DNA of 64,000 nucleotides from Acidobacteriota bacterium (lineage in GTDB: Bacteria > Acidobacteriota > Blastocatellia > Pyrinomonadales > Pyrinomonadaceae): positions 1-64,000 of the forward strand of contig QHXI01000090.1 in NCBI GenBank assembly GCA_003222895.1. The letters are read 5' to 3'. The translations under genes and the position numbers were made by a program. Shown here piece after piece: positions 1-2,460 of this stretch. The notes under the pieces are model-generated. The model was not told where the DNA came from. It worked only from the letters and a program-made list of their open reading frames with translations, and made no database searches. Within the stretch, counting starts at the first letter, position 1; each line of letters begins with the position of its first letter.

Positions 1-99
1 CTTTAGCTCATGAAAGACTAGTTCGCCAGTTTCAGTTTTCAAATAACAAATGGTTTGTTGTCGTGCATGAAAGTCAACGCCGATATATATTGTCTCCAT
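1..99 (-). CDS. IS110-family transposase, N-terminal fragment (runs off left edge)
   Basis: Only the first 33 codons are inside the window. The ATG at 99 opens METIYIGVDFHARQQTICY, which resembles the start of the RuvC-like DEDD domain of IS110-family transposases; the Asp in GVDFH would be the first catalytic acid. IS110 enzymes move an unflanked element through a circular intermediate, guided by an element-encoded bridge RNA (family knowledge). A strong ribosome site (AAGGAGG) lies 6 bases upstream but sits in the closing stem of a folded leader at 100-168. The catalytic Ser domain is outside the window, so activity cannot be judged. Confidence 0.8.
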   Translation of the reverse strand, partial: METIYIGVDFHARQQTICYLKTETGELVFHELK

Positions 100-168
100 A
101 GCGCCTCCTTTCAGTCTCATGTCGAATGAGCGACTGGCCGTGAGTCTAGCACTCACGAAGGAGGCGCT
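100..168 (-). ncRNA. Folded leader RNA of the IS110 transposase (three-way junction sequestering the RBS)
   Basis: On the minus strand the 69 bases before the ATG can form a closed three-way junction. A perfect 11-bp outer stem pairs 158-168 with 100-110. Inside are a perfect 7-bp hairpin (151-157 with 139-145, loop 146-150) and a second hairpin with CAGT/ACTG and CTCAT/ATGAG arms within 111-138. The 3' outer arm contains the AAGGAGG ribosome site next to the ATG at 99, so the fold would mask translation initiation. It may be a translational attenuator, part of the element's bridge RNA, or both. Pairing is read from sequence; expression is unknown. Confidence 0.55.
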
Positions 169-179
169 GCTTCATAACA

Positions 180-272
180 TCAGTACCGGGAGCGGTAGCG
201 ACTGGGTTGGATATAATTTCGCGAGCCCCGATTACCAAGTTAATGCCCGGTCGCTACCGCTCCCGTTCTGAC
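180..272. repeat. REP type A, inverted pair
   Basis: A perfect 16-bp inverted repeat (187-202 with 250-265) lies within two copies of the same unit. The forward copy starts at about 180 and the reverse copy ends at about 272. The unit has a head, TCAGTACC or TCAGAAC, followed by a core, CGGGAGCGGTAGCGAC. The same unit recurs at 54660-54688 inside a gene. Confidence 0.75.
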
Positions 273-321: not shown

Positions 322-2460
322 TTAATACTGCCAGTTTACGTTCACGTAACCGGTTCCGCTGGTGGGCACGGTGTACTGATGGTTATTTCCTGCTTCCCAC
401 GTCACCGAACCATTCGCCGCGATCTTTATGAACTTGAATTGGATCGTCTGGCCCGCCGGTACGCTCGCCGTTAGAAACCAGTTGGGATAATTTGGCGGCA
501 GCATCGGACCGACCGCCCCGTCCCACGTCGTACTCCAATTTCCGAGTTCGACGGTGCTGCCGGTAAGAAAGATGTAGTCGCCCGTCTGCGTCGACGTCGC
601 GTTGTTAACTGTGAACGTCACTGGAATCAGTTTCGCCGTCAGCACTGTATATTGAATCCCGTTCGAAACCTGGCTCGACGAATTCGTAACCGTGACGTTG
701 TAACCGCCATTCGTCACCGAAGGAGTTGTGCAAACTATCTTCGTCGACGTCCACGAATTGATCGTCGCGGTGGTCGTGCCGAACTTTACGCTGCCTGCGC
801 TTGAGCCAAAGTTGCGACCGGCGATTGTAACCTGGACGCCCGCTTGGCCGGAGGTTGGTCCAATTGAGCCTACCTCGGGTGCGGCCGCGCCTTCGGTGAA
901 TTGCCAAACCGCGACGGTGTGGGCCGGCAACGTAAAAGTAGTTACCGGATTATTTCCTCCCGATCCCGTGTTAACCGATATCGACGAGCCGCCCAAAAGC
1001 CCGTTGAGATAATCGCTGTAGCTCCCGACCGGAAGCGACGTGTTAAGACCGCTAATCGAGTACGACGACGTTTCGTTCTTGTTGACGGCGATGAGCGCGA
1101 CGCTACCAAAAAATTTCCGCTCAAAGATGTAAACGTCGCTACTAATCCATCGCTGGCCCATCGAGCCGTACGGAATTGCCGGATTGTTATGACGCAGGGT
1201 CGAGAGCTGCCCGATCAGTTTATACGCCGTCGTGGTGGTGCTGAAGCCCGGCATCATAGGTCGATTGTAAGGGTCGCCGCCTCCGTTGGTGTCGTTGTGC
1301 AAGTACTGCTCGGTGCCGTAATAGATGCACGGGATACCGCGACTGGTGAGCGTAAATGCCAGGGCTTCATGCAAGCGGTTATTGTTATTGTTGAGGGTCA
1401 GAAAACGGGTCATGTCGTGATTGTCGATAAACGTCACCAGGTCTTCTTTCCAGGTAAAGTTGCCGGCCTCTTGCGAGATCACACCGTCAATCTCTGAAAA
1501 GTTAGTGTTCGAACCGAAGACATCACGAATCGCCGTGTTAAGCGGAAAGTCGAGCATCGATATGCCGCTCTTGTTCGCAAACTTGTAAGAATCATGGTAG
1601 AGCGGATCTGAACTATTGCCCTGGTACCATTCCCCAAAAAGAAAGCTGTCGCCGTAGGTGTAGATCGAGTTGGCAAAGCTGTACTCCCAGCCCCAGTTCG
1701 CGTGCTTGATCGCGTCGATGCGAAACCCGTCGACGCCGTGTTGCTGAAACTGTTGCACCGCGTTTTTGAGATAACCGTCGATCGTTGCGCTCTCCTGATT
1801 CAGATCGGCGAGATCGAACAGCGCGTAATACTGCAACTGGTAACGATCGTTCCAATCAGAAATATTTCCGTTATGATGAAAATAACCGTTCGCGTCGTTG
1901 GTGTAGTTCCCGACGAAACTTCCGTTGTCGTACAGCGCGCCGTATTCGCCCGCGTTGTCCTGGGTCGAATGGTTCGGCGCAAAGTCGACGATCACCTTGA
2001 TCCCGTTCTGGTGCGCGGCCGTCACCAGATTATCGAAGTCGGTCCAGGTATTACTGGTGTCGCCAAAATGTTCTTCGACTTTTTTGAAGTCGCGTCCCTG
2101 GTAGCCATGATACGAAGCGGTTGGGTTGCCCTGGCCGTCGGGAATATTCGTATTCAGATTGTCTACCGGCGGCGAAATCCAAACCGCCGTCACACCCAAG
2201 CCCGCCAGGTAAGACATCTTCTGCTGAATGCCGGCGAGATCGCCGCCCCAGTAAAGACGCCAATTGGTCTTGGTCGAATCGTAGAGGCCTGAGCTCTGTG
2301 ACGGATTGTTGTTCGCGGTACTGCCGTCAAAAAACCGATCGGTCATGATTTGATAAATGACCTCACGCTTGAAGTCGGCAGCCTGAACACTACAGAAGAA
2401 AGTTAAGTGAATCGAAATTAAGATTGAAAATACCCTGAAACATGTAGCAGCTTTTCGCAT
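322..2460 (-). CDS. Secreted GH13 enzyme, probable cyclodextrin glucanotransferase
   Basis: The 712-residue protein is predicted to act outside the cell on starch, either transferring alpha-1,4-glucan chains (including cyclisation) or hydrolysing them. Residues 1-27 form a Sec signal peptide ending SVQA. The GH13 barrel follows, with nucleophile Asp249 (GFRIDAIKH), acid/base Glu277 (FGEW) and Asp346 (FIDNHD). An all-beta C domain, an IPT/TIG domain at about 530-605 and a C-terminal CBM20 starch-binding domain complete the A-B-C-D-E layout and length of CGTases. Phe215 (ALFDLADLN) occupies the central site where CGTases have Tyr or Phe and plain amylases have small residues. A maltogenic amylase of the same layout is the main alternative. 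The gene stands alone. Confidence 0.88.
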   Translation of the reverse strand: MRKAATCFRVFSILISIHLTFFCSVQAADFKREVIYQIMTDRFFDGSTANNNPSQSSGLYDSTKTNWRLYWGGDLAGIQQKMSYLAGLGVTAVWISPPVDNLNTNIPDGQGNPTASYHGYQGRDFKKVEEHFGDTSNTWTDFDNLVTAAHQNGIKVIVDFAPNHSTQDNAGEYGALYDNGSFVGNYTNDANGYFHHNGNISDWNDRYQLQYYALFDLADLNQESATIDGYLKNAVQQFQQHGVDGFRIDAIKHANWGWEYSFANSIYTYGDSFLFGEWYQGNSSDPLYHDSYKFANKSGISMLDFPLNTAIRDVFGSNTNFSEIDGVISQEAGNFTWKEDLVTFIDNHDMTRFLTLNNNNNRLHEALAFTLTSRGIPCIYYGTEQYLHNDTNGGGDPYNRPMMPGFSTTTTAYKLIGQLSTLRHNNPAIPYGSMGQRWISSDVYIFERKFFGSVALIAVNKNETSSYSISGLNTSLPVGSYSDYLNGLLGGSSISVNTGSGGNNPVTTFTLPAHTVAVWQFTEGAAAPEVGSIGPTSGQAGVQVTIAGRNFGSSAGSVKFGTTTATINSWTSTKIVCTTPSVTNGGYNVTVTNSSSQVSNGIQYTVLTAKLIPVTFTVNNATSTQTGDYIFLTGSTVELGNWSTTWDGAVGPMLPPNYPNWFLTASVPAGQTIQFKFIKIAANGSVTWEAGNNHQYTVPTSGTGYVNVNWQY

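What the first reader, a model, noticed from the sequence alone, without database searches (positions are those of the whole stretch)
100..168. Three-way-junction RNA masking the ribosome site of an IS110 transposase
An 11-bp perfect outer stem encloses two hairpins immediately before the ATG. Its 3' arm contains the AAGGAGG site, so the fold should block translation until opened. IS110 elements also make guide (bridge) RNAs from non-coding ends, so this RNA may serve in targeting, in self-limitation, or both. The non-coding end here is short (about 70-85 bases).
Basis: partly seen in the sequence, partly recalled or inferred. Interest (0 to 1): 0.7.

Follow-up and report, generated by a model that had tools for sequence, protein, structure and literature searches.

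The report
Transposase RNA lock, far-end key
The start of this jumping gene's message folds up and hides the ribosome site of its own transposase, and a matching stretch at the element's other end is predicted to open that fold, which would tie transposase production to the presence of the other end, for example in the excised circle.

Summary
On the minus strand (window 168 to 100) an 11-bp perfect stem encloses two hairpins, and its 3' arm holds AAGGAGG before the ATG (MFE -36.2 kcal/mol, z -4.7). It is the 82-nt left end of an IS1111-type IS110-family element, cut by the contig end, at the tail of a REP. Five left ends and four right ends lie on contig ends of the same genome. The stem is real: relatives change its letters but keep the pairing. 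It is not the guide RNA, which in this group comes from the right end, and its loops do not match the REP. They do match the other element end: in 24 of 27 elements with both ends, the leader segment just before the Shine-Dalgarno arm is complementary to a segment about 60-100 nt before the right end, with compensatory changes. This pairing and the mask exclude each other in folding models: predicted site accessibility rises from 0.21 to 0.58 when the own right end precedes the leader, and only to 0.25 when that segment is shuffled. Best reading: an RNA lock, opened by right-end RNA. The mask is well supported; trigger and sign are inferred. A masked leader is known in ISPpu9; I found no description of the far-end key.

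The parts
1..99 (-). First 33 codons of the IS110-family transposase, cut by the contig end
   Evidence: 82% identical to the G034 transposase start; no Pfam hit on the fragment alone
100..181 (-). Left end of the element (82 nt), the transposase leader; left-end base n is window 182-n
   Evidence: Boundary from five own-genome copies and about 30 relatives beginning GATG
169..174 (-). TGAAGC, left copy of the subterminal inverted repeat (right copy GCTTCA on other contigs)
   Evidence: only 6 bp perfect in the own element
158..168 (-). 5' arm of the mask stem
139..157 (-). Hairpin 1, with -10-like TAGACT at 148-143
112..136 (-). Hairpin 2
111..131 (-). Segment complementary to the right end (GCTCATTCGACATGAGACTGA)
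   Evidence: 0/5000 shuffles against the own right end; same place in relatives
100..110 (-). 3' arm of the mask stem, containing the Shine-Dalgarno AAGGAGG (110-104)
182..272 (.). Flanking REP/REPIN target; AGTACC at 182-187 is the tail of the REP

Best explanation
The structure is the 5' leader of an IS1111-type transposase gene and works as a translation lock with two mutually exclusive folds. Locked: the 5' arm, next to the subterminal inverted repeat, pairs with the Shine-Dalgarno arm; this happens in any transcript that enters the left end without the right end before it, including read-through from the host. Open: the segment between hairpin 1 and the Shine-Dalgarno arm pairs instead with a complementary segment 60-100 nt before the right end. 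Shown here by sequence: the mask stem and its covariation, and the left-right complementarity and its covariation. Shown here by modelling only: the mutual exclusion. Inferred: that RNA:RNA pairing is what is selected; that it activates translation; that the partner comes from transcripts crossing the right-left junction of the excised circle, where the right end lies just upstream and folds first, or else from right-end RNA in trans or from the 3' part of the same mRNA.
For: Mask: z -4.74, own versus swapped arms, covariation 0/500. Key: own element 0/5000; 22 of 23 relatives at 4/500 shuffles or fewer, L042 43/500; swapped right ends mostly score like shuffles; in eight closer relatives 12 double-sided compensatory cells against 3.3, 0/500. 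Exclusion: Shine-Dalgarno accessibility 0.21 leader alone, 0.58 with own right end upstream, 0.25 with only that segment shuffled; 22 of 22 elements above their shuffled mean, Wilcoxon p 5e-7; swapped right ends 0.23, inverted repeat without the key 0.26. Window element 0.06 to 0.58. In trans 0.22 to 0.46. Junction-promoter geometry TTGAC-17-GATG-like in 19 of 21 right ends. Precedent: weakening the ISPpu9 leader fold raised translation 26-fold (PMC8450116).
Against: No RNA or protein data. The junction promoter would start near left-end base 10, downstream of the right-end segment, so opening in the circle needs transcripts that start further upstream or run round the circle. Mismatches between the two segments do not favour G-U (13 against 10 reverse transitions). 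L127 is predicted to become less accessible. Three elements with both ends (L053, L055, L092) and eleven plasmid elements lack the complementarity. Own left and right ends come from different contig ends. The models ignore pseudoknots, proteins and kinetics.
Confidence: 0.5

Rival explanations
1. Simple lock without a key: the leader masks the ribosome site in read-through transcripts, while a weak internal promoter (-10 in the loop of hairpin 1) starts inside the stem and gives messages with a free site, as in IS10 and IS50 (own knowledge). The left-right complementarity serves something else.
For: Mask well supported. -10-like TANNNT in the hairpin-1 region in 28 of 34 left ends against 9.5 in shuffles. 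A leader starting at base 45 has mean accessibility 0.51 against 0.22 for the full leader.
Against: No clear -35 at the right spacing; leaves the conserved left-right complementarity unexplained.
Confidence: 0.2
2. The right-end RNA is an antisense repressor: it pairs with the leader next to the Shine-Dalgarno and blocks translation of messages that escape the mask, giving guide-RNA feedback and copy-number control.
For: Complementarity lies directly upstream of the Shine-Dalgarno arm; antisense control is common in insertion sequences (IS10, IS30, IS200, cited in PMC8450116).
Against: The paired segment stops short of the Shine-Dalgarno and start codon; models predict more, not less, accessibility, both for the full leader (0.22 to 0.46) and for the short one (0.51 to 0.61).
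Confidence: 0.13
3. The two segments act as DNA: a second pair of subterminal inverted repeats, or a left-end site bound by the right-end RNA, used in excision or insertion rather than in translation. A related option is a 5'-3' duplex in the mRNA that is cut to release the guide RNA.
For: Distance to the ends is fairly constant (59-103 nt from the right end, left-end 39-75); G-U wobble is not favoured.
Against: Perfect fit of the left segment into the gap between hairpin 1 and the Shine-Dalgarno arm. In ISEc11 a mini-element with cargo after base pair 50 or with its centre replaced still moved (PMC11187229), though ISEc11 was not tested for this feature.
Confidence: 0.14

Closest known systems
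ISPpu9 of Pseudomonas putida (IS110 family, in REPs), PMC8450116
   Same: Transposase 5' leader folds over the ribosome site; small RNAs encoded on both sides of tnp modulate it; inserted in REP sequences
   Different: 244-nt leader; an antisense RNA (Asr9) opens it and a downstream sense RNA (Ssr9) binds Asr9. Here the leader is 82 nt, the mask arm adjoins the inverted repeat, and the right-end segment is itself complementary to the leader
IS1111 group with seekRNA (ISEc11, ISPa11, ISKpn4), PMC11187229
   Same: Short left end, long right non-coding region, subterminal inverted repeats, junction promoter; ISPa11 also targets a REP
   Different: No leader mask or left-right pairing is described in the parts read; the pairing was not detected in IS5075 and ten other plasmid elements
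IS10 and IS50 protection against read-through transcription (own knowledge)
   Same: Transcripts from outside fold over the transposase start
   Different: Here the proposed alternative partner lies at the far end of the element
IS621 bridge RNA (IS110 group), PMC11208160
   Same: Promoter formed across the RE-LE junction of the circle; REP targets
   Different: There the left-end RNA is the guide; here it is a leader

Membership tests
IS110 family, IS1111 group | DEDD RuvC-like domain plus Transposase_20 domain | tested here: met
   Full-length relative L036 matches PF01548 and PF02371; L036 and L042 match NF033542 above cut-off. The 33-aa window fragment alone gives no Pfam hit
IS110 family, IS1111 group | Long non-coding region downstream of tnp, short upstream | tested here: met
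   82 nt upstream; at least 178 nt downstream in the own element, about 170-400 in relatives
IS110 family, IS1111 group | Subterminal inverted repeats, usually 11-13 bp | tested here: inconclusive
   About 8-13 bp in many relatives, only 6 bp perfect in the own element
IS110 family, IS1111 group | Active junction promoter in the circular form | tested here: inconclusive
   TTGAC with 17-bp spacing in 19 of 21 right ends, circle -10 predicted GATGAT; activity not testable here
IS110 family, IS1111 group | Guide RNA from the downstream region bound to the transposase | not testable with these tools
   Needs RNA co-purification
IS110-group bridge RNA in the left end | Long left end encoding a guide with a target-binding loop | tested here: not met
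   82-nt left end and no significant REP complementarity
ISPpu9-type masked transposase leader | Leader fold that includes the ribosome site | tested here: met
   (structure and covariation; effect on translation not tested)
ISPpu9-type masked transposase leader | RNA complementary to the leader that opens it | tested here: inconclusive
   A complementary right-end segment exists and is predicted to open the fold; no such transcript is shown

The most novel reading that the evidence does not exclude
A circle-sensing RNA switch: transposase translation is locked while the element is integrated and unlocked only when transcription crosses the right-left junction of the excised circle, because the right-end segment is then made first and displaces the mask.
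Probability: 0.33. Interest if true: 0.78.

Novelty: new variant of a known kind. Interest (0 to 1): 0.62.

Why it matters
IS110 and IS1111 recombinases are now studied as RNA-guided tools, but how native elements limit or trigger their recombinase is little known. A leader lock whose key lies at the opposite end, kept by compensatory change across a clade found mainly in Acidobacteriota, would link recombinase production to an intact element or to its excised circle. It can be tested directly with reporter fusions.

Tried and rejected
Left-end RNA as guide RNA: rejected by layout and by lack of REP complementarity. RNAalifold on the MAFFT left-end alignment: no pairs, replaced by arm-swap and named-structure counts. 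G-U asymmetry to separate RNA from DNA pairing: inconclusive. Left-right pairing in IS5075 and ten other plasmid IS110-family elements: not found, although several have a shorter outer stem. L053, L055 and L092 failed the first left-right scan and were left out of the later one; L039 was left out because its right end is cut by the contig. Rfam: nothing credible. Viral contigs: no relatives. Plasmid DNA search: no match. Literature searches for such control in IS1111: nothing beyond ISPpu9.

Full report
What is there. Window 1-181 is the left end and the first 33 codons of an IS110-family element on the minus strand, cut by the contig start. Five left ends lie on contig ends C60, C64, C96, C138 and C160 of the same genome, each after the GGTACT (or close variant) tail of a REP hairpin. 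Empty REPs read GGTACTGAC. The right end, absent from the window, was recovered from contig ends C167, C74, C82 and C44 by searching with a relative's right end.

The fold. In relatives with 39-66% identical transposases the same plan recurs with different letters: GGTTTCTCC/GGAGAAACC, GGCACCTCC/GGAGGTGCC, GTTGGTCTCG/CGAGACCAAC, GTTGATTCCAT/ATGGAATCAAC. More distant relatives keep it too: AAGAAGGCTTC/GAAGCCTTCTT in L127, CGAAGGCTCC/GGAGCCTTCG in L129. Own arms pair better than arms swapped between elements, -21.5 against -14.5 kcal/mol, and changes on both sides exceed shuffled and slid controls.

Which group. The layout is that of IS1111: short left end, long right non-coding region, subterminal inverted repeats, and TTGAC placed 17 bp before a GATG-like tetranucleotide in 19 of 21 right ends. 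In that group the guide RNA comes from the right end (PMC11187229; PMC11208160). The own element's inverted repeat is short (6 bp perfect), a weak point for formal membership.

The other end. The leader segment between hairpin 1 and the Shine-Dalgarno arm is complementary to a segment 59-103 nt before the right end (or before the contig cut, for two elements) in 23 relatives: 22 at 4/500 shuffles or fewer, L042 at 43/500. It is also present in the own element: 21 leader positions with one gap and one mismatch, 0/5000. Three further elements with both ends lack it (L053, L055, L092), so the count is 24 of 27. Right ends swapped between elements score on average like shuffles, apart from near relatives. 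In eight closer relatives one aligned position holds T-A, C-G and A-T pairs in different elements, and double-sided changes total 12 against 3.3 in shuffles. Eleven plasmid elements including IS5075 do not show it, so it marks a clade.

How it may work. The mask pairs left-end bases 14-24 with 72-82; the key pairs a right-end segment with bases 51-71. In circle order (right end, then left end) the two helices cross, so a nested fold can hold only one. Modelled accessibility of the Shine-Dalgarno rises from 0.21 to 0.58 with the own right end upstream, but only to 0.25 when the key segment alone is shuffled; all 22 elements exceed the mean of their shuffled control. The inverted repeat without the key gives 0.26 and swapped right ends 0.23, against 0.22 for the leader alone in that set. 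In trans the mean rises from 0.22 to 0.46. In transcripts crossing the junction the key is made first, which would favour opening during transcription. The junction promoter itself would start near base 10 and so make a masked message; opening then needs transcripts from further upstream, a second pass round the circle, or right-end RNA in trans. These are inferences from nested-fold models.

What is known. ISPpu9 already shows a masked transposase leader in this family, with a 26-fold rise on weakening the fold and an antisense RNA proposed to open it (PMC8450116). The mask is therefore a known kind. I did not find a description of a key at the opposite end kept by compensatory change, but the library holds open-licence papers only, so this is no proof of novelty.

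Verdict. Observation confirmed; masking well supported; targeting role not supported; a lock with a far-end partner is the best reading, with the trigger and even the sign of regulation still open.

Noticed in passing
window 182-272 and genome-wide: REP/REPIN repeats: GGTACTGAY occurs 159 times in the genome (reversed control pattern 34), and the genome has seven Y1_Tnp (RAYT-like) genes over the family cut-off.
   Followed up: partly
window 148-143 (minus strand): A -10-like TANNNT motif sits in or by the loop of hairpin 1 in 28 of 34 left ends (shuffled mean 9.5), without a clear -35; promoter or RNA motif is undecided.
   Followed up: partly
L110, L112, L107, upstream of the transposase genes: IS110-family elements on plasmids of other lineages also seem to pair their left end with the ribosome-site region (10 bp in L110, 7 bp in L112, 6 bp in IS5075), so the mask may be wider than this clade; not tested statistically.
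   Followed up: partly
L078 (Phormidium tenue contig), L070 (Parvularcula MAG): Elements of the same clade with the same leader plan occur in assemblies labelled as other phyla, by transfer or by contamination.
   Followed up: no
L030 (G034:C21:65500-70500): A long copy close to the window's element has its transposase split over two frames and no recognisable right-end repeat.
   Followed up: no
G000:C82:42173-43072: A second, different IS110-family transposase gene (341 aa open frame) in the same genome.
   Followed up: no
window 322-2460 (minus strand): A 712-aa open reading frame beside the element that, by reading, looks like a secreted alpha-amylase-type enzyme.
   Followed up: no
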